Below are positions 1 through 52,628 of a DNA stretch of 64,000 nt, piece by piece. The notes beneath the pieces are model-generated. The model had not been told where the DNA came from. It was given only the letters and a program-made list of their open reading frames with translations, and did not search any database. The position numbers and the translations under genes were made by a program. Origin of the DNA: Tremella fuciformis (lineage: Eukaryota > Basidiomycota > Tremellomycetes > Tremellales > Tremellaceae); assembly GCA_032768795.1 (NCBI GenBank), contig CP136492.1:2294001-2358000 (forward strand). Reading direction: 5' to 3'. Numbering within the stretch: position 1 is the first letter of the stretch; each line of letters starts with the position of its first letter.

Positions 1-1419
1 GAGGTCATTGGAGCGGGTGGTGGTGGTGTTGGCGGCGGTAGCTGCATCATGGGCGGGGGTGGAGACCAGTGAGAAGTCCTTGACGGTCCGGCTTGAGGTA
101 CAGGATCGAGTCCGCCATCCCCTAGCCAACCCGTGCCAGCGTCGCCCATCGGTTCCGGAGCAGGGGGAGGGAGCGGGCTCAGCCTACTCGTCGAGGTAGG
201 ATGCCCCGAACGGAGCCTCTTGTGTGCCAACGGTGACGAGATGGGCGAGGACGAAGAGCGAGCCCGACGTTTCTCTCTTCCCTTTCCCTTCCCTTTCTTC
301 CCAGAAGCCTTGACCGTGCCCGCTAGGTCGATGTTGGCGAGGCCAGCAGCCAAGGTCGTCGACGTGGACCGGGCTGCAGCGAGTCGGCCGGAGCGTCGGG
401 CGCCGGGCGTGACGGGCGAGGGAGACGTGCCGCGGGCGAAGGACACCTGACGGCGCCGTGCCGATGACGAGGGGCCAGGAGTTACCGTGCCGAACGAGCA
501 GGCCAGGGTGCCGCACGTTAAGCACTTCACTTTCTTGCCTTCCTCGACGATGCGACACGGGAGGTCGTCCGCGACACATGCCTCGCATCGCTCATCTCCC
601 TCCAGGACCCGGATTGGCCGTGAACCCGCTTGTTGCTGAATGTCAGAGGATACTAAACAGCTGACAATACTCACCCGGGCCCATGTCAGAGATCTGTTGT
701 ATCCCCGCTGTCCTCGGTCGGGGTAGTGGGAGCCTACTGATCAGTTTGGGCGAAGCTTGCAGACTTTACTCACCAAAGAATGAACGGTCCAATGGCTCTG
801 ACTCTGGGACCGGCAGTCCCCATCCTTTCTTCACATAGTATGCCTCCTCGGAGGCATTACGCGGGTCAAATCGCCGGCTAGGAGAAATCTCCTCCTCGGA
901 CAAGCTCGACGATGCCGGAGTGTCGGGCGCTAGCTCGTCCACATCAGCCTCTACATCCAACTCCTCCTCCCCCTCTTCCTGTGGGACATCTGCGGCGGGT
1001 GCCGCATCGCTGGGTAGCTCCGCAGCTTGTTCGTCGGGCGGTGGGATGACTCCGGCGGCGGGGAGTGGAACAGCCTCGTCGACTGTTGGGACGTCGGCAG
1101 TCGTGGCGGCTTGTGTGGGGGATGGGAAGGGGGTACCTTCGGGTTGGGCGGTGCCGGCACGAGATGGGGATGGGTTGGACATCGAGTCGACACTGACAGT
1201 CTCAAATCGAGAATCGGTTTCTGTGCAGAGTGTTACTGACCCGTCTGAGTCAGAAGATGCCTCGTCTATAGTTGCCGTAGGGGTTGTAGAAGAAGGATAG
1301 GACAGCGCGTTGTCTAGAGAACTGCTGTCGAAGAGGATGTAGGGAGATGGAGGGGGCGAGCTTGTGGTAAAGGTGGATGCGTCGAGTGTTCTTGGCCTCG
1401 AGAGGTGTAGCCAGGACAT
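1..1419 (-). CDS. Antisense six-cysteine protein gene of Ty3-I copy B (3' end outside window)
   Basis: This is a near-identical copy of the complete gene at 51032-52628, at a constant offset of 51209. Start ATG 1419-1417; exon 1 774-1419, intron 737-773 (37 nt), exon 2 675-736, intron 636-674 (39 nt), exon 3 from 635 leftwards beyond position 1. The visible part encodes the acidic Ser/Pro/Asp-rich N-terminal half and the Cys module. Only about the last 60 codons are missing. No inactivating change was found in the visible part. Just upstream (minus-strand sense) of its start, at 1445/1446, a copia element is inserted, which cuts the gene off from the 3'-LTR side where its promoter should lie. 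Function unknown; see the copy at 51032-52628. Confidence 0.75.
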
Positions 1420-7675: not shown

Positions 7676-8492
7676 ATGCCCTGGCTACACCTCTCAAGCC
7701 CAAGAACACTCGACGCATCCACCTTTACCACAAGCTCGCCCCGTCCATCTCCTTACATCCTCTTCGACAGCAGTTCTCTAGACAACGCGCTGTCCTATCC
7801 GTCTTCTACAACCCCTACGGCAACTATAGACGAGGCATCTTCTGACTCAGACGGGTCAGTAACACTCTGCACAGAAACCGATTCTCGATTTGAGACTGTC
7901 AGTGTCGACTCGATGTCCAACCCATCCTCATCTCGTGCCGGCACCGCCCAACCCGAAGGCACCCCCTTCCCATCCCCCACGCAAGCCGCCTCGACTGCCG
8001 ACATCCCAACAGTCGACGAGGCTGTTCCACTCCCCGCCGTCGGAGCCATCCCACCGCCCGACGAACAAGCTGCGGAGCTACTCAGCGATGCGCCTGCCGC
8101 GGCTGTCCCACAGGAAGAGGGGGAGGAGGAGTTGGATGTAGAGGCTGGTGTGGACGAGCTAGCGCCCGACACTCCAGCATCGTCGAGCTTGTCCGAGGAG
8201 GAGATTCCTCCTAGCCGGCGATTTGACCCGCGTAATGCCTCCGAGGAGGCATACTATGTGAAGGAAGGATGGGGACTGCCGGTCCCAGAGTCAGAGCCAT
8301 TGGACCGTTCGTTCTTTGGTGAGTCAAGTCTGCAAGTTTCGCCCAAACTGATCAGTAGGCTCCCACTACCCCGACCGAGGACAGCGGGGATACAACTGAT
8401 CTCTGACATGGGCCCGGGTGAGTATTGTCAGCTGTTTAGTATCCTCTGACATTCAGCAACAAGCGGGTTCACGGCCAATCCGGGTCCTGGAG
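7676..8492 (+). pseudogene. Antisense six-cysteine gene of Ty3-I copy C, broken
   Basis: Same gene as 51032-52628: exon 1 7676-8318, intron 8319-8355, exon 2 8356-8417, intron 8418-8456, start of exon 3 8457-8492. Two lesions inactivate it. Exon 2 carries an in-frame TGA at 8397-8399 where the intact copy has AGA, and exon 3 is cut off before the Cys module by insertion of Ty3-I copy B at 8493. Splice sites and splice phases are conserved, which supports the exon model of the intact copy. Confidence 0.8.
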
Positions 8493-9252
8493 TGTCACGA
8501 TGCTGCGCTCTCCCGTTGGCAGAGGCCCTCTCGCACAATATCAGAGTCAAGAATAAAGGATAAAGGGGTAGAAACGAGGATGTCGAGGTAGGATCCTCGT
8601 CGAGGTTGGATCCTCGTCGAGGTTACAAGGTCGTCGAGGTAACAAGGTCGTCGAGGATACAGCGTGAGTGCGACTCAGCCACGCTGCGTGCCACGGAGAG
8701 AGTGAGATCGTCAATGGTGATCCATGAGACTCAATCAGAGAGTGCTGAAGAACTACGACGGGCGCCCGGGGCATCCTATATGACTCTGCGCCTGCTTCCC
8801 GTTGTCGCGCGTTCATCCAACGTCTACTCCCTCGTCGAGGTTCTCCGGCCCGAGGTAGGTCACGTGTCGGCCACGTGAGAGGTGTCGGTCACGTGCGTAG
8901 GTCGTCGAGGGCGTGGCCGTCGTGACACTCTGCCCACCTTTGAAGTCAAGCTCCTGCGAGACACGCGCTATCTCCATCCACTCCAGCCTTCATCCTCGTC
9001 CTCGTCCTCGTCCTCGTCGAGCACACCCGCATTGCCGATCCATGAGTCGAGATAGCAGTCGAATGACGTCGCTTGTAACGGGAGCGAAACTCTGGCGACA
9101 AGTCGTCGAGCGGTCGTCAAGGAAACGGTGAAAGGACTGCCAATCCGTCGTCGAGGTAGCCTCGTGTTGCTCGAGGGCGTCGCCATGTCGCGGGATGCTC
9201 GAAAACGACATAAACAGAGGGGGGAGAGGGCGTCAGCGCTCTCATCCCCACC
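8493..9252 (-). mobile_element. Ty3-I copy B, 3' LTR and adjacent internal region
   Basis: LTR 8493-8927 (435 bp) followed by the internal segment that matches 52649-52974 in reverse, broken at 9252 by the copia element. Its continuation is 1-1445 in the opposite orientation. It carries a short CTCGTC-type triplet expansion near 8995-9017. Confidence 0.82.
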
Positions 9253-11004: not shown

Positions 11005-14000
11005 ATGCCATCTGTGCAGACGGTGAAAGAGGAGCGCAAGCTCAACGGGCGCGACAACTACGCCCAGTGGGTGCGCGAGATTCGAGTCGTCCTCGGATCC
11101 GCCGGTCTCGTACCCCACATCACCAAGGACGCGTCAGCGATTCGGGCACTCGTCGAGGCTCGATATCCAGTGTCAAGTCCGGCGACAGCAGCCGAGACAT
11201 CAAAGAGAGCAGTTGCTCTATACGAGCATGAGAAGGAGCAGTCCACCGCCCTCTCCACTCTCTACGGCAGTCTGACAGAGACTGTCCAAAACAAGCTTCC
11301 CTCGAACCTGATCGACTTCGAGAATCCTCAACCGAAGGGGCTCTACGATCATCTGGTCACCACATATGGGGCCGACAACGGATCTCGCCTAGCCGAATTA
11401 TGGTCATCGATATTTGGCGAGACCATCCCAGAGAATGAGGACCCCGAACCTCATCTCACAGCTATCCGGTCGCAACTGGCCGAAATCACCTCCTCCGCCA
11501 TCACTTCCAAGCTCACCCTTGAGCAATTCGCCAACCAGATTGGCGCATACGCCGCCATCCGTCGCCTACCGTCCTCATACGGCCTCCTCGCATCGACCTT
11601 CTACTCAGGGACCTCGTCGAACAAGATCCACCTCGACGAGGTTATCGATAGGGTCGCCGATGAACATCGCAGACGTCAACAAAAGGGCGAGAGCGTAAAC
11701 GAGATGGGGATGCTCAGCAAATCTCTGCAGAAACCGGCAAGCAAGAGATGCATCCACCATCCGGATCAGGGGAGGCACTCCACAGATGAGTGCTGGAAAG
11801 TGATTGGAGTGCCGAAGCACATCCAGGAGCAAAGGTCGGCCAGGGAAGCAGCCAAGGGAAGGAAGCAGGGAGGACAAGCGAAGAAGGCAAGAGAGCAGAT
11901 GGAGTCAGGGGACGACTCATCGAGTGAGAACAAGAGAGGCTCGTCGAGGGAGACAAAGGAGGAAGGCTATTATGCGACGGAGATTGCACTACACGCCAAC
12001 GACAACCTCCCATCCACCTCCATCATCATCGACAGCGGTGCCACCAGTCCATTCATCAAGGACAAGCACCTTCTCTCACATCTCACCAAACTCGACAAGG
12101 CCGTCAAGATCCAAATTGGAGACGGATCGATTGTCGAAGCTACACACTCCGGCCGCCTCACCTTCAACAACGTATGGTACAACAACGCCCTCTACGTTCC
12201 ATCATTCTCGCACAACCTCCTCTCAACACAGCGCCTCGGTCCGTACACAGGGACACACTGGCGCTTCTCGAAGGACTCGGCTACATTGGTCGAGAAAGGG
12301 AAGGTCATCCTCCGGGGAAAGAAACTTGGCAACCTATGGGTTGTAGACGACACACCGGTACGCACCACCTCGCGCATTCACCGAGCACTTCAGGCAATAG
12401 AAAACACTGAAGCCGAAGACACTCGCCTCCTCACCTGGCACAAACGTCTAGGTCACTCGAACATGAGGAAGGTGTGGGAGCTTGGGATAGAGGGGAAGCT
12501 AGGCGCAAAGTGGACAGGGTCATTTCGGAGAGTCGAATGCATGGATTGCCTGAAAGGGAAGGCAACGCGCTCGGCATCTCTACCTAACCCTCGTCGAGCC
12601 AGCAAGCCCCTCGTCGAGGTATCAGTCGATCTATGGGGACCAGCGACCGTCCAGTCGAGAGAAGGCTTCCAATACTTCCTCACCTGCTATGACGACCACA
12701 GCAAATACGTGCAGGCCATACCACTCAAGAAGAAGTCGGATGCAGCCGAAGCACTGCAAGACTATATCAAGTTGGCAGAGAATCAGCTTGATCGAACAGT
12801 CAAGACCATCCGCTCAGACCAAGGAGGCGAATTCACGAGCAAGGAATTCAGCCACTGGTGCAAAAGCAAGGGAATTGAGCACACCCTTACGCCGACCGAC
12901 GCACACAACCAAAACAGTCGAGTCGAGCGCGTCCATCTCACCATCCTCAATGACATCCGGACATGTCTTGCCGACTCGAACTTGCCAACCCAGTTCTGGG
13001 TAGATGCACTGCGATATGTAGTCTTCACTCGGAACAGGCTACCAGGCTCCCACGCGAAAATCCCGATGACGCTCTTCCGACCAAACCACGACATCGACCT
13101 GCAGTACCAGGGGATGCAGCCATTCGGCCATCACTGCATCTATCGAGTTGTGAACCCCGCATCGAAGCTCGACGAGCGGGGACAATGCGGTCGACTGCTG
13201 GGGTACACAGAAGGGAGCTGGGGCTACAAGGTGCTGACCCAATCCAACAGGGTCATCGCAAGCCGAGACGTCACATTCATCACGGGCAGGAAGACAACGC
13301 CCAGTTCAGATGAACCACGACAGATCCTGGAGCCGCCTCAACCTGGACCTCGACAACCATCGACGAGCCTCGACGAGGATGACGATACATCCATCGAGCT
13401 GAACGAGATAGTCGAGGCAGGGGAGGCACCAGAAGAAGAGGAACAAGGGGAAGAGATGGACGACATACCTCCCCAAGCCGTACCCAGGCAAGGAAGAGGC
13501 TGGGTCAATGAGTACATCCGAGAGGATGCACCGAGCCCGGAACCGAATCCCGACGACGGACCAGAGGATCCCGATCGTCGACTAAACGAGCTCACAGCGG
13601 CCGATGCAGATGAGCCAAGACGGTCGGGGAGACTAGCGGGCCAAGAACCTAGTCATCACCCTCTGCACGACATCGACATGGACTATAACCGAGTAGCCAT
13701 AGAGCACGCGTTATCAGCCCAGTCACTCAACAACCCCCAGTCGTACACCGAAGCTCGTCGAGCCGCAGACTGGGAGGATTGGAAATCGGCCATGGACGAG
13801 GAGATGGGAAAGATGGAGAAGTACGGAGTGTGGGAGATGGTTCCCAAGGAGAATCACCGCACTCTTACAGGCAAATGGGTATTCACCCGCAAGATCGACG
13901 GGGACACGGGCAAAGCGAGTCAGCACAAGGCCAGATTCGTTGTGAGAGGATTTCAACAAGTCTCAGGACGAGACTTCGACGAACTCTTTGCTTCGGTCAC

Positions 14001-15297
14001 CCACAAGTCATCATTCCGCCTGTTCCTCTCCATCGTCAACTACCTCGACTGGGAATGCGACCAAATAGATATCATTGGAGCATTCCTCAAGGCCAACATC
14101 GACAAGGACATCTTCATCGAGCCACCAGAAGGCAGCGACATCGCCGCCGGACACGTTCTGCACCTCCGGAAATCACTATACGGTCTCCGACAATCACCGC
14201 ACTTGTTCAACAAGCGCCTCGACGAGTTCCTACGGGAGCTAGGCTTCAAACCGACCCTAGCGGATCCATGCATCTACTCGCTGCGACAAGGACACAAGCG
14301 GTGCATGATCTCAGTCCACGTTGACGACATGCTCATAGCCGGCAACGATCGATCAACAATTGACGAGATCAAACGGAAGATCAACAAGGAACTCGAGTGC
14401 AAGGACCAAGGACCGGTCTCTTACTTCCTCGGTATCAACATCTACCGAGATAGGTCAAACAAGAAGATGTACCTGTCACAAGAGCACTACATCGAGGCAG
14501 TTCTTCAACGCTTCGGTGAACCCGGCAAAGCCTGCAAGACAATCTTGCCTGACGCAAAGCTCGTCGAGGCTACGCCAAAGGAGGTCGACGAGGCTCGAGA
14601 TAAACCATTTCCAGCACTCGCCGGGTCAATCCTCTATATTGCCACGATCACCCGACCCGACATCGCCTACGCAGCATCACTGCTCTGTCGCTTCATCAGC
14701 AAATGGTCACTCGCACATTGGAGGGCCGCAAAGCACCTATTAAGGTACCTGCGAGGAACATCAGATCTCGCACTCACCTTTGACGCACATGCAGGAAGAA
14801 GAGCACTGCTAGGCTGGGCAGACGCAGACTGGGGTGGATGTCTCGACACACGTCGATCTACAACTGGCTACGTCTTCAATACATACGGGGGCATTGTGTC
14901 ATGGAAAAGCAGGCGACAACCGACAGTCGCACTCTCGACAACACAGGCCGAACTCCTAGCATCAACAGAAGCGGGCAAAGAGGCAATATGGCTCAGGCAA
15001 TTATTGAACGACCTCGACCTCGGTATAGATGGGGCAGTGCCCATCTACAACGACAACAATGGAGCCATTCAACTGGCCAAACATCAACACGGGTTCAAGC
15101 TGAACAAAGCATTCGACATGCGAGCCCAGTGGATACGAGAGCATCAAGCTGGTGGACTGCTTGAGCTCAAATACACACCAACGGACAGCAACCGAGCCGA
15201 CATCCTGACCAAGAACCTTTCGGCCGAGAAGACGAGACAGCTTCGGCAGCTACTGGGCTTGGGAAGACAAGGAGAAGCAGAGCAGCAGAGTCAATAG
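11005..15297 (+). CDS. Ty1/copia Gag-Pol polyprotein, intact, 1430 aa
   Basis: One uninterrupted frame. In order: Gag; a Cys/His segment (CIHH ... H..CW, residues about 250-270); aspartic protease with D-S-G near 12030; integrase zinc module (HKRLGHSN ... C..C near 12440-12560) and catalytic core with D near 12630, D near 12815 and E near 12925; reverse transcriptase with V-D-D at about 14320-14328; RNase H with the DADW motif near 14823. The copia order (integrase before reverse transcriptase) is clear. Gag and Pol are in one frame, so the Gag:Pol ratio is not set by frameshifting as in yeast Ty1. No stop or frame break was seen. ATG 11005 is 98 nt after the internal LTR end. Confidence 0.93.
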   Translation: MPSVQTVKEERKLNGRDNYAQWVREIRVVLGSAGLVPHITKDASAIRALVEARYPVSSPATAAETSKRAVALYEHEKEQSTALSTLYGSLTETVQNKLPSNLIDFENPQPKGLYDHLVTTYGADNGSRLAELWSSIFGETIPENEDPEPHLTAIRSQLAEITSSAITSKLTLEQFANQIGAYAAIRRLPSSYGLLASTFYSGTSSNKIHLDEVIDRVADEHRRRQQKGESVNEMGMLSKSLQKPASKRCIHHPDQGRHSTDECWKVIGVPKHIQEQRSAREAAKGRKQGGQAKKAREQMESGDDSSSENKRGSSRETKEEGYYATEIALHANDNLPSTSIIIDSGATSPFIKDKHLLSHLTKLDKAVKIQIGDGSIVEATHSGRLTFNNVWYNNALYVPSFSHNLLSTQRLGPYTGTHWRFSKDSATLVEKGKVILRGKKLGNLWVVDDTPVRTTSRIHRALQAIENTEAEDTRLLTWHKRLGHSNMRKVWELGIEGKLGAKWTGSFRRVECMDCLKGKATRSASLPNPRRASKPLVEVSVDLWGPATVQSREGFQYFLTCYDDHSKYVQAIPLKKKSDAAEALQDYIKLAENQLDRTVKTIRSDQGGEFTSKEFSHWCKSKGIEHTLTPTDAHNQNSRVERVHLTILNDIRTCLADSNLPTQFWVDALRYVVFTRNRLPGSHAKIPMTLFRPNHDIDLQYQGMQPFGHHCIYRVVNPASKLDERGQCGRLLGYTEGSWGYKVLTQSNRVIASRDVTFITGRKTTPSSDEPRQILEPPQPGPRQPSTSLDEDDDTSIELNEIVEAGEAPEEEEQGEEMDDIPPQAVPRQGRGWVNEYIREDAPSPEPNPDDGPEDPDRRLNELTAADADEPRRSGRLAGQEPSHHPLHDIDMDYNRVAIEHALSAQSLNNPQSYTEARRAADWEDWKSAMDEEMGKMEKYGVWEMVPKENHRTLTGKWVFTRKIDGDTGKASQHKARFVVRGFQQVSGRDFDELFASVTHKSSFRLFLSIVNYLDWECDQIDIIGAFLKANIDKDIFIEPPEGSDIAAGHVLHLRKSLYGLRQSPHLFNKRLDEFLRELGFKPTLADPCIYSLRQGHKRCMISVHVDDMLIAGNDRSTIDEIKRKINKELECKDQGPVSYFLGINIYRDRSNKKMYLSQEHYIEAVLQRFGEPGKACKTILPDAKLVEATPKEVDEARDKPFPALAGSILYIATITRPDIAYAASLLCRFISKWSLAHWRAAKHLLRYLRGTSDLALTFDAHAGRRALLGWADADWGGCLDTRRSTTGYVFNTYGGIVSWKSRRQPTVALSTTQAELLASTEAGKEAIWLRQLLNDLDLGIDGAVPIYNDNNGAIQLAKHQHGFKLNKAFDMRAQWIREHQAGGLLELKYTPTDSNRADILTKNLSAEKTRQLRQLLGLGRQGEAEQQSQ

Positions 15298-17161: not shown

Positions 17162-17563
17162 CTCCTCTAACGAGGTCCTTTGTGTACGGGTACCGAACAC
17201 ATCGACTACTGCAAAGTCTGTAACAAGGCTGCTGGACTTGCACACAAAGGCTGTCACAGGGCCAGGCCGGTCGTTGACTGATGGGCCCTCTCACATGTGC
17301 TCTCCGTCAATCTATCTCTGTTCTCCACAAGACGGTGTACCCTACAGCCTCTCGTGCATTGACAACACGGCTGCGCCATTACTTTTTATTCATGAGACTC
17401 AATACCACGGTGCTAAGGACGGTCTATGGGTGAGAGCTTCTGAATATACCACCTGTGCTCCTCTGCACCGCCTTGGGGCTTTCTCCTTGAAATACCATTG
17501 ACAAGGCTCAAGCTCTAGAATCGTCAAAGCTACTCCACGCTCGTCAAAGCTACTCGAGGATTG
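17162..17563 (-). repeat. Decayed LTR-Z fragment
   Basis: The reverse complement of about 17200-17520 is similar to 56790-57060 (GAGCCTTGTCAA ... GGCTGTAGGGTACACC ... GAGAGGGCC ... CAACGACCGGCCTGGCCC) and partly to 55200-55350. Internal parts of the element are absent. It is interrupted at its left-sense end by Ty3-II. Confidence 0.5.
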
Positions 17564-18198
17564 TGTCACGATCCAGCAAATACACACGACGGAATCATAC
17601 TGAGCCAACCATTGCCTATTTGATCGTCCCATTTTAAAAGACAATAATTGACTGACACCTGTCAATATACTGACCGACACCCGTCTACGACCCCTAGTTG
17701 ATAGGTGTGCCTTATGTCGGACACAACGGAGGACACTTGTCCACCGTGGCTTAGAGACATTGATTGATAGGAGATGGACAGAGACTGGACAGTGAAAAGA
17801 CAAGTGTCGGACAGAGTTACCACAAATATTGGACGACCCCCTTTGTCTATATAAACCCCCTTCTTCCCGTAGTTCGTTTGATTCTTCCCAAGGATCAAAA
17901 ATATCCATAGCTTGATATCGTACCCTCCCTCCTCCCTTTTCCTCACACAGCTTACAGCTGGTGGGATCTTATATAGTCCTTGCACTACTCTTGACATACC
18001 CTATCAAGCTCTCGTCACTTCACCACAGACCTACCCATCTTGGATAGCTTGCCCTCGATCCTTCCAAGCTATCACTTGCCGTCCAACTGATCAACACCCA
18101 GGACTCATCTCTTCTGGTAAGTCCCTCCTGCTAAACCGTCTTATTCGCCCCTGTCTCCATTTGTATAGTCTAGGTCTGGTGGGGACAGGCCCGTGACA
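17564..18198 (+). repeat. Ty3-II 5' LTR
   Basis: Starts TGTCACGATCC and ends CCCGTGACA. Contains a TATATAA box at about 17846 with a downstream leader, consistent with a promoter in the LTR. Confidence 0.92.
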
Positions 18199-18374
18199 GT
18201 ATATTTTTGATCCTTCACACTAGTGTTTGATCAGTGTATGCTTGTCTACCTTTGGACATTGACACTTTGGTACGTCACCTCCTCTTTCATCCTCCTTCTC
18301 ATCATCTATTGCTTTGCCCTTCGCATTGCACTCCTCCTCTCCCCTAGCAGACTAATCTAGGTCACTTCTTCATC

Positions 18375-19484
18375 ATGGCACCAGCCATTACTCGATCACA
18401 AGACACCCATGAGGGCTCAGGCTCCTCACCTGTTGTCCCTTCTACCCAGGACCTTCCGTCTCAACCTGAAACTTCAATTCTCAGCACTCCGCCTGCAGCC
18501 CACACTCCTGGGTTGCCTACCACTCAGACTGAGGCTGTTGCAGCACTCAGACAGCCATCTGCGGCGCCTACAATGGCCACAGCCACTTCCCATGGTACCA
18601 AGCTTGGCGAGCCAAAGGTTGCAACACCTGAATACTACAGTGGGCAGCGGAGCAAGCTGAACCCATTCATCACTCAGGTCACTATGGTTATCCTACTTCA
18701 GCCAAGTCGATTTCCAAGTGAGGAGTCCAAAATACTTTTTGCTGGCTCCTATTTGCGAGACACCGCATTCCTATGGTTCCAGCCTTTTGTGACCGCTCAC
18801 CCCAAGCCTTTATTCATGTCTAGCTTTGCAGAGTTCTGCAAGGAGCTTAGGCAGACCTTTGGGGATCCTGATGAGGTTGCCACTGCAGAGCGACAGCTCT
18901 ACAACCTCAAGCAGAAGGGCTCTGTCACATCTTACCTGGCTGAGTTCAACCGCTACGCGGTGATGGTAAAGTGGAATGATGAGGCCAAGGCTGCTCAATT
19001 CTACCGAGGCCTCAAAGATGGAATCAAGGATGAGCTAAGCAGGGCTGGCCGCCCTCATGAGCTCAAGGATATACAGGACACTGCTGTCCGCATTGACAGC
19101 AGGTTCTTTGAGCGCAGAATTGAGAAGGGTGAGCAGACTCCTGTACAGACTAATACTTTTAGCACATCTCGCTTCACCCCACGCTCTGCAACAACCACCT
19201 TCACCAAAACGCAGAGTACTTACACCAAGCCATCATACCAGGAGAATCTTCGATTGATCTCACCACCCACCAAGGACAGGCTTACTCGAGCAGGAAAGCT
19301 CAGCCCTGCAGAGTATCAAAGGCGTAAGGACAACAAACTCTGCCTTTACTGCGGAGACAAAGGACATCAAGTATCCCAATGCCCCATTGCGCCCGCCAAG
19401 CCTGCTCCACAGCTACGGGCTATGAGCAGTGGTGTGGAGAAGGTAAAGCCCGCAAAGGCCTCTTCCCCAGCGGGGAAAGCCTAA
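18375..19484 (+). CDS. Ty3-II Gag, 369 aa
   Basis: ATG 18375 is 177 nt after the LTR. The central part (about residues 95-215) resembles the retrotransposon Gag (PF03732-type) helical domain, with a W-F-x-P-F region. Near the C-terminus is one zinc knuckle of the form C-x2-C-x4-H-x4-C ([14 protein letters not shown], about residues 325-338). The Ser/Thr/Pro-rich N-terminus is typical. The stop TAA 19482-19484 overlaps the pol frame, which is at -1 relative to gag, so Pol needs -1 frameshifting. Unlike in Ty3-I, no canonical slippery heptamer is obvious near the stop. Confidence 0.9.
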
Positions 19485-21076
19485 GCCTCCAACCTCCCTC
19501 TACTGGGAATCTGGGGTTGGAACCACAGGCTCAACAGGTTCCCATGTTCTTTGGATTTACTGACTGTACTAATTTTGGACTAGATACCGACCAAAACACC
19601 CAAGACCAAAAACAATTGACACTGTCCTTTCATGTGCCAAACCGAACTGAGTCATTTCAGGCTCTTATTGACAGCGGAGCCACCAACAACTTTATCGACA
19701 AGAGCTTTGCCCAGTACTACCGTTTCCCTATTCAACAGATTCAAGACCAAGCTTTCATGCTGTTTGACGCTTCTGGCCACAAGAGCAAGGTTACTCAAGA
19801 AGTGGTTGTTTGCTTGAATTTTGACCCACCATTCGGACCCACCTGGATCCGCCTTTATGTCACCAAGGTGCACAAGATTCCAGTTGTGCTTGGCATTCCC
19901 TGGTTGCGCCAGCATGATCCTTTCATCAGCTGGTCAAGAATGAGCATTACACCTAGTGCCCACTGGCCAACCAACTGCACCATTGGCCCTATGAGGCTGA
20001 ATGCCTTACAAGCTACCTCTTCTGAAGACCTACTCAATGTACCATCAGAGTATCATGAGTTTGCTGATGTGTTTAGCAAAAGCAAGGCAGATACCTTGCC
20101 CCCACATCGACCATTTGATCACCATATTCCTCTGGAGGACGGCCAACAACCTCCATTTGGCCCCATTTACTCCTTATCCGAAGTGGAACTCTCCACATTA
20201 CGCGACTACCTCTCTGAAAATCTCAGCAAAGGATTCATACGCCCCTCAGAGTCACCAGCAGCATCGCCAATACTATTTGTCAAAAAGAAGGACCTAAGTC
20301 TGCGCCTTTGTGTGGACTACCGAGGTCTCAACAAGATCACCATCAAAAACCGCTACCCTCTACCTCTGATCTCAGAGCTTCTTGACCGCCTCAGGTCAGC
20401 AAAGATGTTCAGCAAGATTGATCTCAGAGGTGCTTACAACCTCCTTCGAATCAAAGAGGGTGAAGAGTGGAAAACTGCCTTTCGCACTCGATATGGACTC
20501 TTCGAATATTTGGTAATGCCCTTTGGCCTTACCAATGCACCCGCTTCTTTCCAACACCTCATGAACCATCACTTCCGAGACATGCTGGATCACTTTGTCA
20601 TTTGCTACCTTGATGACATCCTCATCTTCAGCACTGATGAGCCAACTCACCGCCAGCATGTAAAACAAGTTCTTCAACGTTTGCGTGAGACCGGCCTCTA
20701 CGCAAAACCTGAGAAGTGTGAATTTCACACAACCACCGTAGAGTTCCTAGGGTTTGTCATCAGCCCAGAAGGAATTGCCATGGACCTCAAGAAGGTAAAA
20801 ACAATACTTGACTGGCCTACACCTCATAATCTCACAGAGGTGCGATCATTCCTTGGGTTCTGCAACTTCTACCGGCGTTTCATCAAGAACTACTCAAAGA
20901 TGGCTACACCATTGACCTCCCTCACCAAGAAGGATCTAACATTCCAGTGGGGTGAATTGCAACAGCTTGCATTTGACTCCCTCAAACACGCCTTCACCTC
21001 TGCAGACTTGCTTAAACACTTTGACCCAGACAAGCAGCTTGTGCTGGAAACCGACGCATCGGATACTGCTATAGCA

Positions 21077-21231
21077 TGTTACACAACGATGAGAGCGATG
21101 CATTCATCCATCTCTGCAGCTCTCCGTATATGAGCTGTCGCTCTGCTCAAGCTATCTACATAAGGTTACTCATTTGGCCGCAAGAGGCAATTCTGACCCT
21201 ATGAGGCGTTCACGGTGCTTATTGTTCAACA
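21077..21231 (-). repeat. Ty1-II LTR (3' LTR in element sense)
   Basis: 155-bp direct repeat of 23866-24020. Confidence 0.92.
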
Positions 21232-23688
21232 CTCCCCCTCGAAGTCGGCGGGCTGCAGCTCGTTGAGCGTCTCTGCGACGGTGTTGAGCGTCTCCGGGAC
21301 AGCGTCGAGCGCCTCTAGGCCACCCTGCAGCCTGTCGATCTTCGCACCATGACAATCGAGCCCGGGAACGACTGATGCGGACGTCGCACGGATCACTGCT
21401 CCTCTTCTAGGCAGCTCGGAAGCGATCCTTTCGTTCTCCGTCATTTCTGCACCAATCTCGATGATCTTGGTGTCCTCCGGTAGCTCTGCTCTTCCTTGAT
21501 GCTCTGCAGCTCCCCCTGCATGCATGCAGTCTCTGATACCCCGTGCACATGCAGCGAAGCGTTGCTGATGATGCGCAAGCTGATGGGTCGGCTGACCAGC
21601 GGCGTTTCGGCGATTCGGCTCAGACACGTGATGTGGCTCCACGTCGTCCCCGTCTGCAGGACGACTTGTCATCGTCTCTCTCTCGCCGTCGTCTTTCAGC
21701 TCGTCATTGGTGGCCGACATACGCATGCAGCCGTCCTCCTGCGCTGCGAAATGACTCTCCTGACGTAGGGCTTCAAGATGGTGCGCGGCAACGGCGGTGG
21801 CGGGCGACTTGGTGAGCGGAACTTCAGTCGGGCTGATCCCCAGCTCTGCAGCCGTGCCGGTGTCGATGGTGTTGACGGTGTCGACGCTTCTCTGGCCCGT
21901 ATCCGCGGTCTTCCTCTCATCACCGGCTCCCCCTGCTCCCCTCTGATCACCAAACGACGCCGCCTTGCCCTCATCATCGTCCTGCGAGTCCTCAAAGCGA
22001 TCAGCGACGATTTCGGCCTTGACGTCTCTCGCGGCGGCGGTGTAGCCCAGGGCGGTCGGGCTGGTGGCTGTCTTGAGAGCAACGGTCCACAGGGACCCTC
22101 TCTTCCTCATGGTGAGCGTCTCGTCTTCTCTCTGCAGCGTCCCGCCGCCGTCTCTGATCTCTGCTTCCCAGCCGCGGGCAAGCAGCCTCGACAACGAGCA
22201 CACGCTGACTCGAGCAGTCGGCACGAGATACACGTCTTGCAGCGTGAGGCGTCGTCCCGAGAGGACAACGTCAACCTCGCCTACCTCGATGGCCTCGACG
22301 GTACCTCCACTAGCGAGCCCAAAGGCGACGGGCGTCTCGAGCGCTCGCACGCTCTTGAGGATCGAGCGGTGCGGGGTCAAATGATGGGTGGCTCCGCTGT
22401 CAATCACCCAGTCCGTCTCGACGACGCTCTCGGCGGTCTCGACGACATTCTCCATGTCCTCGGCGGCCTCGCTGTTCTCGGCAACGGCCTCACAGGTGGT
22501 CTCACTGGCCTCTGCGACCTCGACGGTCTCTGCGACCTCGACGATCCTCTCGGCGGCGACGACGGACTTGCTCTCAGCCCATGGGTTGCCGAGCAGGTCG
22601 GCCCACTCATTCGCAGCAACAGTCAGACCGATCCACTCCATGCCGGCGGCGAGCAGCCCCGTGCTTGCCTTGGCCGGGATGGTGACGCGCTTCTCCTTGG
22701 TAGGTCGTTTGTCCTTATCTGCGACCGAGTGCTCATCGTCAGAGCTCTCCTCGCTATCACTGTCATCGTCATCCTCGGTGTCGCTCTGCTCGTCGCGATG
22801 ACGTCTCTGTCGGTCCCTGCGGTCCCCATGGGTCTTACGCTGACGTGCAGCCTTGCAGTCCCGTTCCCAATGACCCGTCTCACCGCATCGCCAACATTCG
22901 TCATCCTTCTTAGCCTTGTTGCGACGACGCTCCGCCACCATGACGGCGTCTCCGTGATTCCTCTCTGTCAGGCCGTTCTGGTCAAATCGGCCATATCGTC
23001 CGAGCGACGGCCTAGCCCGTCGTCGAGCGATTTCTGCGGTGTATTTGGAGAGCACGACAGACCAGGTCTGCTCACTCTTGGCGATGGGGGCTAGCTCAGC
23101 CCGGACGATGTTGAAGGCGGGATCTAAGATCGTCGACAGAAACCTCTGCGCGCGCTCGCCATCGCTCAGGACGATCCCGACGCGCTTGCCGTCCGCGATC
23201 GCCTTCGAGAACGTCTCTACGTGCGCGCTCATGTTGTCCGCCGACGCATCACCTTTGAGATCCATCGTCCACAGCCTGGACTGCACGATGCGCTGGTTCT
23301 CGAGCAGATCCACTTCGTGCATCTTGTCGCAGTATTTCCACATGTCGACGGCGGCGAACAGGTCTTCGATGTCGAGCCGAACAGCCTCTGAAGCTGTGCC
23401 CTTCAAAATCGCCTGCGCCCTGCTCTCTCGGGCTTGCCACCGTTCCCAGTCTCTCTTGTCATCCCAACTGAGCCCGCCAGCCTCTGATCCTGTCGGCATG
23501 ACAGATCCAGCTCGGACTCGGCGCTCGGCGGTGACGGCCTGCCCTGGCTCGATATCGAGCCCCAAGGCAGCATTCCAGCAGTCTGACAGCTGCAGGGCGA
23601 TCTCGACAGCTGCTCGCCACGGCGCGTATGACGACGGGTCGTGCGATAGCTTCGGGATCGCGTCAATGTTGATTCTAGCGCTCGACAT
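21226..23688 (-). CDS. Ty1-II Gag-protease, about 820 aa
   Basis: ATG 23688-23686 (the first ATG of the frame). Gag with a W-x-x-W-x-R/A-rich N-terminal part; zinc knuckle CWRCGETGHWERDC near 22870-22910; a very acidic Asp/Ser/Glu stretch near 22730-22790; Ala/Glu/Val-rich repeats near 22430-22560; then aspartic protease with D-S-G-A-T-H-H near 22395 and a GAG-pre-integrase-like segment. The long acidic tail replaces integrase and reverse transcriptase. The stop codon (21226-21228) lies inside the 3' LTR. This resembles known non-autonomous copia groups that encode only Gag, with protease in addition. Confidence 0.85.
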   Translation of the reverse strand: MSSARINIDAIPKLSHDPSSYAPWRAAVEIALQLSDCWNAALGLDIEPGQAVTAERRVRAGSVMPTGSEAGGLSWDDKRDWERWQARESRAQAILKGTASEAVRLDIEDLFAAVDMWKYCDKMHEVDLLENQRIVQSRLWTMDLKGDASADNMSAHVETFSKAIADGKRVGIVLSDGERAQRFLSTILDPAFNIVRAELAPIAKSEQTWSVVLSKYTAEIARRRARPSLGRYGRFDQNGLTERNHGDAVMVAERRRNKAKKDDECWRCGETGHWERDCKAARQRKTHGDRRDRQRRHRDEQSDTEDDDDSDSEESSDDEHSVADKDKRPTKEKRVTIPAKASTGLLAAGMEWIGLTVAANEWADLLGNPWAESKSVVAAERIVEVAETVEVAEASETTCEAVAENSEAAEDMENVVETAESVVETDWVIDSGATHHLTPHRSILKSVRALETPVAFGLASGGTVEAIEVGEVDVVLSGRRLTLQDVYLVPTARVSVCSLSRLLARGWEAEIRDGGGTLQREDETLTMRKRGSLWTVALKTATSPTALGYTAAARDVKAEIVADRFEDSQDDDEGKAASFGDQRGAGGAGDERKTADTGQRSVDTVNTIDTGTAAELGISPTEVPLTKSPATAVAAHHLEALRQESHFAAQEDGCMRMSATNDELKDDGERETMTSRPADGDDVEPHHVSEPNRRNAAGQPTHQLAHHQQRFAACARGIRDCMHAGGAAEHQGRAELPEDTKIIEIGAEMTENERIASELPRRGAVIRATSASVVPGLDCHGAKIDRLQGGLEALDAVPETLNTVAETLNELQPADFEGEC

Positions 23689-23865
23689 CTTGCGATAGAG
23701 GGGTATCCAAGACTGTCGACGGGGTCTGTGCACACGCGGGGGTGCTGCAACGATTGTCGGTTACAAGAGTGGCGGCTTCCAGAGCGTCCCGGCTGACGGC
23801 GACGGCTCGAGCGATCCTGAAGCGAGCTCTCGGTAGCTCAGAGCTGAGTCTTGGGACTTTTAATC

Positions 23866-24020
23866 TGTTACACAACGATGAGAGCGATGCATTCATCCAT
23901 CTCTGCAGCTCTCCGTATATGAGCTGTCGCTCTGCTCAAGCTATCTACATAAGGTTACTCATTTGGCCGCAAGAGGCAATTCTGACCCTATGAGGCGTTC
24001 ACGGTGCTTATTGTTCAACA
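23866..24020 (-). repeat. Ty1-II LTR (5' LTR in element sense)
   Basis: 155-bp direct repeat of 21077-21231; promoter side of the element. Confidence 0.92.
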
Positions 24021-25927
24021 TAGCAGGTATCCTTTCTCTCGAGGATGCAGGGAAGTTGTGCCCCCTGGCATTCATGTCCCGCAAGATGCTCCCTGCAGAG
24101 CTGAATTATGAGATCCATGACAAGGAGATGCTTGCCATTATAGACTCCTTCAAGGAATGGCGACACTACTGCGAGGGATCTAAATCTCCCATCAAGGTCT
24201 ATACCGATCACCGGAGCCTGGAATATTTCACTACTTCCAAGCAGCTCAACCGGCGTCAAGCTCGATGGTCTGAATTCCTTGCAGACTTCCATTTCCAGAT
24301 TATCTACCGCCCAGGCTTACAAGGGACAAAGCCTGATGCTCTCACGCGGAGACGTGATGTGCATACTAGTCAACGAGGATCAAGTCTCAAGACTGAGGAA
24401 AACCCTCAGAACTTCCAGCAACTCATCAAGAGCGACCAATACCTTGGTGCTCTTGGCACTTCCTTGGACATTACCTTTCCACTCAAGCTGCAACTGAAAA
24501 CCAGCCTTCTGGCTGATGTATCAGCCAAAACGCTTCTGGAAAAGGCAAAGTCACCGACCGAACAGCATCCGTTCTCAATCGACGATGAAGGATGTCTCCG
24601 TTACCATTCTAGGTATTATGTTCCAGCCGTACAGGACTTGCGCCTCAAGATCGTACGACTCTCTCACGACTCGCTCCTTGCGGGGCATCCTGGCCGCCGC
24701 AAAACACTACAGCTAGTGCGTGATCAATTTTGGTGGCCACAGATGAAGACGTTCATCAACCACTATGTGGACACATGTGATATGTGCTGTCGTACCAAGG
24801 CAAGGCGACATGCACCCTATGGGGAACTCAAATCTTTACCGGTACCACCCTTTCCCTGGTCATCAATATCGATGGACCTTATTGAGTTCCTACCTGTTTC
24901 AGAGGATCACAATGCCATTCTGGTCATTGTTGACCGGTTGACAAAGATGGCAATCTTTGTGCCAACCACGACCAGCCTCACTGCGCGTGAGCTGGCCTCC
25001 ATCTACTTGCGGCATGTTTTCTCCAAACATGGTCTCCCAAACAATATTGTGTCTGATCGAGGATCAGAATTCACCTCCGACTTTTGGCAGTGTTTCACCA
25101 AACTGCTTGGGATTGAGTCCCACCTCAGCACTGCCTTCCACCCCGAGACAGACGGTCAAACGGAACGAGTTAACCAAGCACTTATTCAGTACCTCCGCCT
25201 GTACTGCGACTACCAGCAGAAGGACTGGGTCCAACTGCTACCTCTGGCAGAATTTGCGTACAACAATACTCCGCACTCTTCAACAACAGTATCACCATTT
25301 GTTGCTAACAAGGGCTATGCACCTCGCACTGCCACCACACTGCAGTCAAGCCCCACTACTAGCTCTGATGCACAGAGCTTCACCGCAGATCTTGCAGAGC
25401 TGCATGAGTATCTCAAAACAGAGGTTGTGAAAGCCAACCTCTCTGCAGCAAAGCATTTTGACAAGTCCCGATTGCCAGCACCAGATTTCCAAGTTGGTGA
25501 CAAAGTATGGCTTTCAACAGAATACATCAAGACCTACCGTCCATCAAAGAAGCTGGACCATCGATTCATTGGCCCCTTCAAGATCACTGAAAAGATTTCA
25601 AGTCACGCATACCGTCTGAAGCTCAAACCAGGCATGAGGATACACGATGTGTTCCATGTCCACCTCCTTGAGCCGTACCTTACCAATACAATACCACACC
25701 GTCATCAGCCACCCCCTCCTCCTGTCAGAATAGAAGGTGAAACGGAATATGAGGTGGAAGCCATCCTTGACAGCAGGATTGATAAACGATTTGCAGACTC
25801 CCGCCGTTACCTTGTCAAGTGGCTTGGCTACAACGAGACAACCTGGGAAGGTTCTGAAAATCTCAAGCATTGTCAATCACTACTCAACAGGTTCAACCGG
25901 GAGAATTACATTCAGCCTGGACAGTAA

Positions 25928-26443
25928 AACAAGACTCTTGTCTTCGACTATCTGCAGATCTCACTACTCTGATACTGGCCCAACTTTATCTCCAAGACTT
26001 CCACATTGCTTACTGACTTAGTGGTAACATCAGTGGTCTCGGATTCCAACAGGTGGTTGTGAGTTCAAAACCCAGCTGATGCGAAGCTTTTTGCTTTAAG
26101 CCCTCGGATACATGATCCCCGAAGTACCTGTGTAGGAGCCCTGGCAGAATGCACCGCCGCTGGCACGCTGGCAGGTACGGAAAGGATTATGCCACCGGCT
26201 AAAGGGCTGAGCAAACGAGCTACGTGTCAGCCAGTAGGGGGGTTTTGCTCCCCCATCAAATTTTTGACCTATGGGCGGTATCATCGGTCAACAGCTTGCA
26301 CGTCTAGGGGCATGCCAAAGCCTTTAGACATGCATCCACGTAACAAGAACTTTACAGCCAACTTTACCTACAGCCTCAGCGGCAATGGTGCATCCCTGCA
26401 CCCCTTTTGACGAACAGAGGACAGGAAACAACAGTCACGACGT
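25928..26443. other. Ty3-II internal non-coding stretch between pol and antisense gene
   Basis: No convincing coding frame. Both genes converge on this roughly 0.5-kb stretch, which should contain the 3' end of the antisense transcript. Confidence 0.5.
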
Positions 26444-27300
26444 TCAGATTGGCCCTCCCTGCAACATCTCACCAATGCCTTGGAACAGTCGGAGCATCAT
26501 CTGCTGCCTCGCTTGCTCGACTTGCTGCCACTCCTCTGCCAGCTGCCGAGCATAACCTACAGCCAAGCGTAGGCCAGGTACTTCCTGAGCGAGATGCTGC
26601 CTGTAAGCAATCACCCCCGCATGCTACAGACTTACTTCCTGGTTATGTACCCCCCTCCGAGGCATCCTTGGTCGGCCAACTCCCATCCTTGCTCGATCTG
26701 CCGCAGCCTCCATGGAAAATGAGCAGCCTCTTCCAGTGCGGATGCAGCGTAGGCAAGGTCGATCCTTCTCCAGCTGCATACAGGGAAAACGAGGATGGAT
26801 GCTTTCTCGACAACACTTGCACCGATGGTGTCCCTCGTGGATAGTCCTTAGAGTAGGGTGGGCATTCTCTATGCGACGAGCTTGCACAAGCCTGTCTTGT
26901 TGCTGCACATCAGCTCCCCTCTCCGCAAGGACTTACCCTTCGAGACAACAGGAACTCGTGCATGGCAGCCAGACCATCCTGTTCAGGCATAGCCTCGTCA
27001 ACGACAGCCGCCTATTCTCAGCTGTCCGTGCTTAATCAACAGCTCACCAGGACAGGAGAACGCAATCTCATCTGTCCTAGATGTTCCTCGGGATGCTCTT
27101 GCTCGTCTGCCTCTTGAACGGGGCCATACTCAAAGTTGCTCCCCAAATCTGCTTGAGTCGGAGCAGCTCGACGAGTCTGGAGTTAGATTGGCACACCTCC
27201 ACATGTCACCTACCGTGGCCAAAATAGCATCGAGTCCACCAGCCTCGCCAATTGCCTCAAAGATGTCCTCCCAAGACTGCTCGTTCGGGCTCAAAGTCAT
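26444..27300 (-). CDS. Antisense zinc-cluster-like gene of Ty3-II, 236 aa, five exons
   Basis: Exons 27214-27300, 27048-27176, 26937-27011, 26636-26902, 26444-26596; introns of 37, 36, 34 and 39 nt, all GT-AG, all in phase 0. Intron 1 has a perfect CTAAC branch site just before CCAG. Only this splice pattern keeps one frame from ATG 27300 to TGA 26444-26446. N-terminus: acidic helix (SPNEQSWEDIFEAIGEAGG). Centre (exon 4): C-x2-C-x9-C-x8-C-x2-C-x6-C followed by SF, close to GAL4-type Zn2Cys6 spacing, then a basic R/P/G segment. C-terminus: amphipathic helix rich in Q/E/R. It lies between pol and the 3' LTR, antisense to the element. Role unknown; DNA or chromatin binding is an inference. The module is shared with the gene at 51032-52628. 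Confidence 0.85.
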
Positions 27301-27343
27301 GTTGCAAAGATGTAGAGTCACGAAGAACGAGCATCCCGCTCCA

Positions 27344-27351
27344 CTTATATA
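27344..27351 (-). promoter_or_regulatory. TATA box of the Ty3-II antisense gene
   Basis: TATATAAG on the minus strand, about 44-51 nt upstream of ATG 27300 and outside the LTR. The antisense gene therefore has its own promoter. Confidence 0.7.
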
Positions 27352-27564
27352 CACTTGCTCATAGACAAGCGACAAGCCTTCTTTCCGCAGACACCTGTCA
27401 ATTTTGGACAACGCCAAGGTGCGGAAAGCTCGACACCTGTCCATCAATGGAAGACATGGACACCCTGCGGGAAGAACGACAACGACTTACCTACGTCAGC
27501 TCCAGATTTGCCAGAACTCTGAATTCAGGGGTTCGAGGGACCTCACCCGTCAGTGGGGGGATAC

Positions 27565-28199
27565 TGTCACGATCCAGCAAATACACACGACGGAATCATA
27601 CTGAGCCAACCATTGCCTATTTGATCGTCCCATTTTAAAAGACAATAATTGACTGACACCTGTCAATATACTGACCGACACCCGTCTACGACCCCTAGTT
27701 GATAGGTGTGCCTTATGTCGGACACAACGGAGGACACTTGTCCACCGTGGCTTAGAGACATTGATTGATAGGAGATGGACAGAGACTGGACAGTGAAAAG
27801 ACAAGTGTCGGACAGAGTTACCACAAATATTGGACGACCCCCTTTGTCTATATAAACCCCCTTCTTCCCGTAGTTCGTTTGATTCTTCCCAAGGATCAAA
27901 AATATCCATAGCTTGATATCGTACCCTCCCTCCTCCCTTTTCCTCACACAGCTTACAGCTGGTGGGATCTTATATAGTCCTTGCACTACTCTTGACATAC
28001 CCTATCAAGCTCTCGTCACTTCACCACAGACCTACCCATCTTGGATAGCTTGCCCTCGATCCTTCCAAGCTATCACTTGCCGTCCAACTGATCAACACCC
28101 AGGACTCATCTCTTCTGGTAAGTCCCTCCTGCTAAACCGTCTTATTCGCCCCTGTCTCCATTTGTATAGTCTAGGTCTGGTGGGGACAGGCCCGTGACA
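27565..28199 (+). repeat. Ty3-II 3' LTR
   Basis: 635 bp, visually identical to 17564-18198. Preceded by a purine-rich tract (27552-27560) and followed by GATTG. Confidence 0.92.
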
Positions 28200-28204
28200 G
28201 ATTG

Positions 28205-51031: not shown

Positions 51032-52628
51032 TCAAGATGTTCCCTCGAGAAACTCCCCAAGTGTCAACTCGTCGAAGTTAACACCCAAGTCACCTGCGAT
51101 GTCTCGCGCCCGTGAGATAAAGTAGGTACGCATCGGTGCTTGAGTCTCTCGGCGAGCGAAGTGACTCAATTGAAATAACTCTTGCCACCGGCGGTCTGGG
51201 GCAGAGGTCGAGGTCATTGGAGCGGGTGGTGGTGGTGTTGGCGGCGGTAGCTGCATCATGGGAGGGGGTGGAGACCAGTGAGAAGTCCTTGATGGTCCGG
51301 CTTGAGGTACAGGATCGAGTCCGCCATCCCCTAGCCAACCCGTGCCAGCGTCATCCATCGGTTCCGGAGCAGGGGGAGGGAGCGGGCTCAGCCTACTCGT
51401 CGAGGTAGGATGCCCCGAGCGGAGCCTCTTGTGTGACAACGGTGACGAAATGGGCGAGGACGAAGAGCGAGCCCGACGTTTCTCTCTTCCCTTTCCCTTC
51501 CCTTTCTTCCCAGAAGCCTTGACCGTGCCCGCTAGGTCGATGTTGGCGAGGCCAGCAGCCAAGGTCGTCGACGTGGACCGGGCTGCAGCGAGTCGGCCGG
51601 AGCGTCGGGCGCCGGGCGTGACGGGCGAGGGAGACGTGCCGCGGGCGAAGGACACCTGACGACGCCGTGCCGATGACGAGGGGCCAGGAGTTACCGTGCC
51701 GAACGAGCAGGCCAGGGTGCCGCACGTTAGGCACTTCACTTTCTTGCCTTCCTCGACGATGCGACACGGGAGGTCGTCCGCGACACATGCCTCGCATCGC
51801 TCATCTCCCTCCAGGACTCGGATCGGCCGTGAACCCGCTTGTTGCTGAATGTCAGAGGATACCAAGTAGCTAACAATACTCACCCGGGCCCATGTCAGAG
51901 ATCTGTTGTATCCCCGCTGTCCTCGGTCGGGGTAGTGGGAGCCTACTGATCAGTTTGGGCGAAGCTTGCAGACTTTACTCACCAAAGAATGAACGGTCCA
52001 ATGGCTCTGACTCTGGGACCGGCAGTCCCCATCCTTTCTTCACATAGTATGCCTCCTCGGAGGCATTACGCGGGTCAAATCGCCGGCTAGGAGAAATCTC
52101 CTCCTCGGACAAGCTCGACGATGCCGGAGTGTCGGGCGCTAGCTCGTCCACATCAGCCTCTACATCCAACTCCTCCTCCCCCTCTTCCTGTGGGACATCC
52201 GCGGCGGGTGCCGCATCGCTGGGTAGCTCCGCAGCTTGTTCGTCGGGCGGTGGGATGACTCCGGCGGCGGGGAGTGGAACAGCCTCGTCGACTGTTGGGA
52301 TGTCGGCAGTCGTGGCGGCTTGTGTGGGGGATGGGAAGGGGGTACCTTCGGGTTGGGCGGTGCCGGCACGAGATGGGGATGGGTTGGACATCGAGTCGAC
52401 ACTGACAGTCTCAAATCGAGAATCGGTTTCTGTGCAGAGTGTTACTGACCCGTCTGAGTCAGAAGATGCCTCGTCTATAGTTGCCGTAGGGGTTGTAGAA
52501 GAAGGATAGGACAGCGCGTTGTCTAGAGAACTGCTGTCGAAGAGGATGTAGGGAGATGGAGGGGGCGAGCTTGTGGTAAAGGTGGATGCGTCGAGTGTTC
52601 TTGGCCTCGAGAGGTGTAGCCAGGACAT
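51032..52628 (-). CDS. Antisense six-cysteine gene of Ty3-I, 506 aa, three exons
   Basis: Exon 1 51983-52628, intron 51946-51982 (37 nt), exon 2 51884-51945, intron 51845-51883 (39 nt), exon 3 51032-51844; both introns GT-AG, and only this pattern gives one frame from ATG 52628 to the stop at 51032-51034. N-terminal 215 residues: Ser/Pro/Thr- and Asp/Glu-rich, disordered, very acidic near the end (activation-domain-like). Then EGDERCEAC starts the module C-x2-C-x6-C-x10-C-x2-C-x4-C-S-F. Then a basic Lys/Arg segment that could be a nuclear signal (KASGKKGKGKGREKRRARS), a Pro-rich region and a helical C-terminus. The gene lies 124 bp after pol, on the opposite strand. Two further copies (1-1419 and 7676-8492) keep the same splice sites. 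Function unknown; a regulator is inferred. Confidence 0.85.

What the first reader, a model, noticed from the sequence alone, without database searches (positions are those of the whole stretch)
26444..27300. Ty3-II retrotransposon carries an intact, intron-rich antisense gene with a zinc-cluster-like module
Between pol and the 3' LTR, on the opposite strand, five exons separated by introns of 37, 36, 34 and 39 nt (all GT-AG, intron 1 with CTAAC branch site) splice into a single 236-residue frame with its own TATATAAG box. LTR elements normally carry no spliced antisense gene because introns would be lost if the antisense RNA were the replication template. Here the introns survive because the genomic (sense) RNA does not recognise antisense splice sites. 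The C-x2-C-x9-C-x8-C-x2-C-x6-C module suggests a DNA- or chromatin-binding protein. Antisense ORFs are known from some plant Ty3 elements; I know of no described fungal zinc-cluster example, but could not search.
Basis: partly seen in the sequence, partly recalled or inferred. Interest (0 to 1): 0.9.

Follow-up and report, generated by a model that had tools for sequence, protein, structure and literature searches.

The report
Spliced antisense zinc-cluster gene in retrotransposon
A fungal "jumping gene" carries an extra, intron-containing gene on its opposite strand, and relatives of that gene sit in the same place in many other jumping-gene copies of the same genome, which suggests a shared control protein much like the antisense regulator of a human retrovirus.

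Summary
Five exons (introns 37, 36, 34, 39 nt, all phase 0) on the minus strand of a young Ty3 chromovirus (LTRs 635/635 identical) splice into 236 codons. A database protein from a 990-base contig equals residues 80-236 across the intron 3 and 4 junctions, best read as spliced antisense RNA. A second copy keeps all four intron positions, the cysteine spacing and the TATA distance; omega is about 0.09, though that copy has a frame break. The gene is not unique: the same window holds a second Ty3 family with an antisense six-cysteine gene, and 70 of 114 scored integrase copies have a related frame within 3 kb downstream, each antisense. Stretches of three other families showed none. In the second copy the gene and the adjoining U3 half of the LTR are diverged together while pol and the rest of the LTR are close: the 3' block was exchanged. 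Antisense accessory genes are known (plant elements, Botrytis brtn, HTLV HBZ); a six-cysteine, multi-intron one shared by fungal chromovirus families was not found in my searches. Regulation by DNA binding is inferred.

The parts
17564..18198 (+). 5' LTR of the Ty3-II element (TSD GATTG 17559-17563)
   Evidence: 635 bp, no difference from the 3' LTR
18375..19484 (+). gag (Retrotrans_gag, weak CCHC knuckle)
   Evidence: Pfam PF03732 E 5.6e-17
19379..21076 (+). protease and reverse transcriptase part of pol, up to the nested insertion
   Evidence: Pfam RVT_1 E 1.2e-36
21077..24020 (-). nested Copia-like element (835-aa gag-protease type frame, 155-bp identical terminal repeats) that interrupts pol
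   Evidence: TSD TAGCA
24021..25927 (+). RNase H, integrase and chromodomain part of pol
   Evidence: Pfam RT_RNaseH, rve, Chromo
27344..27351 (-). TATATAAG, 51 nt upstream of the antisense ATG; the C9 copy has TATATAAAG 52 nt upstream
27214..27300 (-). antisense gene exon 1 (ATG at 27300)
   Evidence: counterpart of 90 nt in L003
27177..27213 (-). intron 1, 37 nt, phase 0, CTAAC
27048..27176 (-). exon 2 (the most diverged of the exons compared)
27012..27047 (-). intron 2, 36 nt, phase 0; ends with an in-frame TAG, which would explain the start of P0001 at residue 80 if this intron is retained
26937..27011 (-). exon 3
26903..26936 (-). intron 3, 34 nt, phase 0; absent from P0001
26636..26902 (-). 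exon 4, with the six-cysteine module (26723-26821)
26597..26635 (-). intron 4, 39 nt, phase 0; absent from P0001
26444..26596 (-). exon 5, predicted long helix, stop codon included
27565..28199 (+). 3' LTR (TSD GATTG 28200-28204); positions 1-270 are the half that is diverged in the C9 copy
51983..52628 (-). antisense gene of the second Ty3 family in the window (EL2), exon 1 from a chosen ATG (N-terminus uncertain)
51884..51942 (-). EL2 antisense gene, exon 2 (introns 51943-51982 and 51845-51883)
51032..51844 (-). EL2 antisense gene, exon 3 with C-x2-C-x6-C-x10-C-x2-C-x4-C
1..1419 (-). part of the antisense gene of a second EL2 copy, 98.8% identical over 1419 bases

Best explanation
It is a true accessory gene of the element, transcribed from its own TATA promoter just inside the 3' LTR, against gag-pol, and spliced. 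It makes a small protein: a six-cysteine, zinc-cluster-like module followed by a long helix suited to pairing. Shown: gene structure, selection on the protein, kinship across Ty3 families, exchange as a block with the U3 half of the LTR. Probable: splicing in the cell (one contig). Inferred: the protein binds DNA or chromatin, most likely the element's own U3 or antisense promoter, and tunes sense transcription or copy number, working like HTLV HBZ. Because the replicating RNA is the sense RNA, the introns are carried along at every round; and because the gene lies next to U3 at the 3' end of that RNA, one template switch behind pol passes regulator and presumed target on together.
For: Structure and frame. 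P0001 equals residues 80-236 with introns 3 and 4 gone. C9 copy: introns of 39, 40, 39, 40 nt at the same four places, with only 20, 23, 25 and 20 matching positions, same cysteine spacing, pN 0.225 against pS 0.734 over 174 codons. EL2 pair: exon 3 has 9 synonymous and 2 non-synonymous changes, binomial P 3e-4, exon 1 has 1 and 1. 70 of 114 integrase rows have an antisense relative downstream; over, 72 of 100 rows (some loci are in two of these calls) lie within 3 kb downstream of an integrase row, 72 of 72 antisense. C9 against window: LTR positions 271-630 match at 340 of 360 columns, positions 1-270 at 135 of 280. Foldseek listed two PDB chains below E 10, both Gal4.
Confidence: 0.5

Rival explanations
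1. The gene is real and its protein matters to the element, but not as a transcription regulator: it could guide integration complexes to chromatin, help nuclear entry, or counter host silencing.
For: Same selection as the end of pol (omega 0.09 in both); position shared by several families. Some plant antisense proteins are nuclear and of unknown role (PMC7264820, passages).
Against: Pol already carries a chromodomain. The Gal4-like hint, though weak, points to DNA binding.
Confidence: 0.3
2. The product that counts is the antisense RNA, which pairs with the genomic RNA and limits copies; the protein is secondary.
For: Antisense transcription is likely; an antisense RNA role is discussed for LTR elements (PMC7264820, passages).
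Against: Strong amino-acid conservation with near-saturated synonymous sites and unlike introns means that the protein is selected.
Confidence: 0.1
3. A host gene was captured by chance and is passive cargo, decaying in all copies.
For: One frame break in the C9 copy; near-neutral variants in the high-copy family.
Against: Low omega between diverged copies; shared place and strand in at least six families; all 29 rows belong to the two Ty3-II copies or to the high-copy family, so no host parent gene appeared there.
Confidence: 0.05
4. The exons are a chance reading of non-coding DNA.
For: Introns are short, so that joins can be found by eye in many places; no Pfam match.
Against: P0001 identity over two junctions, conserved splice sites and omega of 0.09, 0.05 motif hits per shuffled window.
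Confidence: 0.02

Closest known systems
Antisense aORF-3R of plant Ty3 elements (Grande, RIRE2, Retand with TRP28 domain)
   Same: Extra frame between pol and 3' LTR, antisense to gag-pol, own promoter in Grande, kept in most copies, DNA binding suspected for TRP28 (PMC7264820 abstract, section 5 and passages; PMC11963269 abstract and passages).
   Different: Plant hosts; TRP28 or SMC domains; Retand is not a chromovirus; the term 'intron' has 0 occurrences in both main texts. Here a cysteine module, four conserved introns, fungal chromoviruses.
brtn of Boty elements in Botrytis cinerea
   Same: Antisense gene of a fungal retrotransposon (title of Zhao et al. 2011 in reference lists; named as an antisense aORF-3R in section 5 of PMC7264820; passages of PMC8365987).
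   Different: The paper itself is not held, so its protein and splicing could not be compared; my negative statement on a zinc cluster does not cover it.
HBZ of HTLV-1 and APH-2 of HTLV-2
   Same: Spliced antisense gene starting at the 3' LTR, whose protein lowers sense transcription (PMC3185765, passages).
   Different: bZIP type in HBZ; starts inside the 3' LTR with the ATG in an LTR exon; no sequence kinship claimed.
Zn2Cys6 binuclear cluster proteins (Gal4 type, PF00172)
   Same: Six cysteines with similar spacing and a following long helix; the only two Foldseek rows are Gal4, at E above 8.
   Different: No PF00172 match; first loop of 9 in Ty3-II instead of 6; basic stretch absent or thin.

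Membership tests
Antisense accessory gene (aORF-3R) of LTR retrotransposons | Coding frame between pol and 3' LTR on the opposite strand | tested here: met
Antisense accessory gene (aORF-3R) of LTR retrotransposons | Kept in most copies of the family | tested here: inconclusive
   70 of 114 integrase rows over all Ty3 families; of the Ty3-II type itself only two copies with the gene are known
Antisense accessory gene (aORF-3R) of LTR retrotransposons | Antisense transcription | tested here: inconclusive
   one protein from a 990-base contig that fits a spliced RNA; contig and library could not be seen
Zn2Cys6 fungal zinc cluster (PF00172) | Match to the family profile | tested here: not met
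   no match up to E 1 or E 10, while PF00172 gives 143 rows at E up to 0.01 in this genome
Zn2Cys6 fungal zinc cluster (PF00172) | C-x2-C-x6-C-x5-12-C-x2-C-x6-8-C (recalled) | tested here: not met
   Ty3-II has 9 in the first loop; EL2 and the 53% family have 4, the high-copy family 5 in the last
Zn2Cys6 fungal zinc cluster (PF00172) | Binds two zinc ions and DNA | not testable with these tools
   needs purified protein
Ty3 chromovirus | RT-RNase H-integrase order with C-terminal chromodomain, LTRs, 5-bp TSD | tested here: met
HBZ-like regulator (works like) | Represses or tunes sense transcription from the LTR | not testable with these tools
   no expression data at hand

The most novel reading that the evidence does not exclude
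A spliced antisense zinc-cluster-type regulator is a standing, exchangeable module of a whole group of fungal chromoviruses: an HBZ-like trans-regulator that evolved apart from retroviruses, is handed between element families by template switching together with the U3 promoter half that it controls, and lets each family govern its own LTR.
Probability: 0.35. Interest if true: 0.78.

Novelty: new variant of a known kind. Interest (0 to 1): 0.63.

Why it matters
Antisense accessory genes of LTR elements are known, but the two plant reviews and papers seen here call their role unknown. A fungus with tens of related copies in several families, young elements with identical LTRs, and short introns that report strand and splicing makes the question testable: which RNA is made, what the protein binds, and whether families cross-regulate one another. 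It also shows that introns can persist in a retroelement if they lie on the strand that is not copied.

Tried and rejected
Protein database: the 236-aa query gave one hit (P0001) at E up to 1 among 927 candidates; the alignment of EL2 and high-copy proteins gave none at E up to 0.01 among 7981 scored; the EL2 core gave none at E up to 10 among 46. So no relative in another species is shown, and the host range of the gene is unknown.

PDB sequence searches gave only non-significant matches (best E 0.62, 0.76). A single-sequence fold of P0001 was poor in the cysteine module (mean pLDDT 63); with five more rows it rose to 72. VIA-align found nothing for either model.

Literature: 90 of an open-access library. 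No fungal zinc-cluster antisense gene was seen in those listings; most subscription papers are not held, Zhao et al. 2011 among them. Novikova et al. 2010 (PMC2864245, passages) mentions an additional frame of unknown function; 'antisense' and 'zinc' have 0 occurrences in it.

I considered that the C9 copy might only be an older relative. Rejected: the end of its pol (pS 0.237 over 193 codons) and LTR positions 271-630 (340 of 360) are far closer than its antisense gene (pS 0.734) and LTR positions 1-270 (135 of 280).

The first script of the downstream test for one search used 28 of the 114 integrase rows; one search repeated it with all 114, same result (12 of 27). In one search, columns with local identity below 85% were left out before the counts.

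Full report
What is there. The window lies in an unnamed 28.1-Mb genome of 11 contigs. It is fungal by inference: 143 rows at E up to 0.01 for Zn_clus PF00172, a family that I recall as fungal, and none in the 14 control genomes. Positions 17564-28199 are a Ty3 element with identical LTRs of 635 bp, a GATTG target duplication and a purine-rich tract before the 3' LTR; gag, protease-RT, RNase H-integrase and a chromodomain are recognised by Pfam. A nested Copia-like element at 21077-24020 cuts pol.

The antisense gene. All structural details of the finding hold: five exons, introns of 37, 36, 34 and 39 nt, all phase 0, 236 residues, TATATAAG 51 nt before the ATG. A neighbouring host gene (a D-lactate dehydrogenase by my reading of its translation) has an intron of 41 nt, so such a size is not strange in this host.

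Transcript. The protein database returned P0001, 157 residues from one 990-base contig of source 'lgn', identical to residues 80-236. Introns 3 and 4 are gone from it; unspliced, each of them brings a stop or a frame shift. It begins at the first ATG after intron 2, and intron 2 ends in an in-frame TAG, so that a contig with intron 2 retained and introns 3 and 4 removed would give just this protein. I infer that the contig is RNA-derived; I could not see the contig or the run, and a splice-aware gene caller on DNA is the alternative.

Second copy and selection. [quoted passage not shown] It has introns of 39, 40, 39 and 40 nt at the same places, while the intron letters hardly match (20, 23, 25 and 20 positions), and TATATAAAG 52 nt before its ATG. 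Exon 4 has a frame break. Compared as separate in-frame pieces, the two genes show pS 0.734 and pN 0.225 over 174 codons, omega about 0.09 with near-saturated synonymous sites. The end of pol in the same two copies has pS 0.237, dS 0.285 and omega 0.09 over 193 codons. So the antisense protein is held as tightly as that part of pol, but its DNA is far more diverged.

Exchange as a block. In the 3' LTR of the C9 copy, positions 271-630 match the window at 340 of 360 columns, positions 1-270 at only 135 of 280, and the ATG-to-LTR stretch at 152 of 266; behind pol, 871 bases to window position 26211 are 92% identical. The diverged block thus runs from behind pol through the gene and its promoter to inside the LTR, and ends sharply. 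In the sense RNA that block is the 3' end, with U3 at its end; one template switch behind pol would hand over gene and U3 together. The switch is my inference; the pattern is shown.

Not one element. The six-frame search with the 236-aa protein also found 22 weak rows (E about 0.005 to 0.009), all of one high-copy Ty3 family. The window itself holds a further family, EL2 (pol 46724-50905), with an antisense gene of three exons from a chosen ATG (52628-51032) carrying CEACVADDLPCRIVEEGKKVKCLTCGTLAC, and part of a second copy at 1-1419. EL2 and the high-copy gene share both intron positions before the cysteine exon (phases 1 and 0) and the stretch FFG..YP...NR.L.WA. Stretches behind integrase of six more families were looked at, one copy each: the 75% family (L071), a 55% family (L072) and the 53% family (L075) have an antisense six-cysteine frame; the 65% (L073), 59% (L074) and 45% (L076) ones have none in 1.2-1.3 kb. 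Families are named by integrase identity to the window element.

Count over the genome. Of 114 integrase rows scored (384 candidates), 70 have a related antisense frame within 3 kb downstream, the two Ty3-II copies included. Rows within 3 kb: 54 of 65, 3 of 5, 3 of 3, 12 of 27; 72 of these 72 are antisense, none lies within 3 kb on the other side, and 1.2% would be expected downstream by chance. Some loci are in both. The other 28 rows have no listed integrase near; the integrase list is itself a lower bound. Weak rows up to E 10 or 1 are included.

Results against. In 22 high-copy copies the gene's 39 variants are 27 non-synonymous and 12 synonymous, near neutral (0.87), while integrase in the same copies has 8 and 10 (0.24); three copies have length changes in the gene. 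Nine of the 39 fall in the last exon (residues 362-556), 8 of them non-synonymous; one, synonymous, falls in the cysteine module itself (residues 378-409). The EL2 pair points the other way: 9 synonymous and 2 non-synonymous in exon 3 (P 3e-4), 1 and 1 in exon 1. The domain libraries searched do not recognise the protein. No relative outside this genome was found, P0001 being identical and so presumably of the same species.

Fold. With five further rows (two pieces of the C9 copy, L072, L071, EL2) AlphaFold gives mean pLDDT 72 and block means of 74-85 through the module, with short helices in it and a long helix at 114-153 of P0001. Foldseek lists only two PDB chains below E 10, both Gal4 (3coq, 1d66), at E 8.2 and 8.7, a hint and no more; VIA-align gives none.

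How it most likely works. Shown: gene, selection, kinship, place, strand, block exchange. Probable: splicing in vivo. Inferred: a zinc-binding, dimer-forming DNA binder that acts on the element's own U3 region, as HBZ lowers LTR activity in HTLV-1 (through factors there, PMC3185765 passages). The introns are explained by the strand of the replicating RNA: the element has moved recently (identical LTRs) and still holds all four.

Novelty. [quoted passage not shown] PMC11963269 abstract, passages) and for Boty in Botrytis (brtn, by title and statements in PMC7264820 and PMC8365987); spliced antisense genes are described for HTLV (PMC3185765 passages). What I did not find in print (searches named in Tried and rejected) is a six-cysteine, multi-intron antisense gene shared by several fungal chromovirus families. 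I file it as a new variant of a known kind.

Noticed in passing
window 21077-24020: Nested Copia-like element with 155-bp identical terminal repeats and one 835-aa gag-protease type frame; no reverse transcriptase match in that frame, so it looks non-autonomous.
   Followed up: partly
L003 7896-9629 and L004 653-1523: The C9 copy is a mosaic: pol end and LTR positions 271-630 close to the window element, antisense gene and U3 half far more diverged.
   Followed up: yes
window 8361-8504: A further fragment of the EL2 antisense gene (+ strand, row C3:2302361-2302504) in a stretch with many inverted repeats.
   Followed up: no
window 11005-15297: Copia-type open frame of 1430 aa (by eye).
   Followed up: no
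L070 8123-8998: Frame resembling a MULE or FAR1-type transposase beside a Ty3 LTR piece (by eye, no search).
   Followed up: no
window 53314-53691 and L073 543-971: The same translated repeat (RRSERREA...) beside different Ty3 3' regions; in the 65% family copy it may be an insertion that removed or displaced an antisense gene.
   Followed up: no
window 26407-26844: Sense-strand open frame of 145 aa opposite the antisense exons; no evidence for coding was sought.
   Followed up: no
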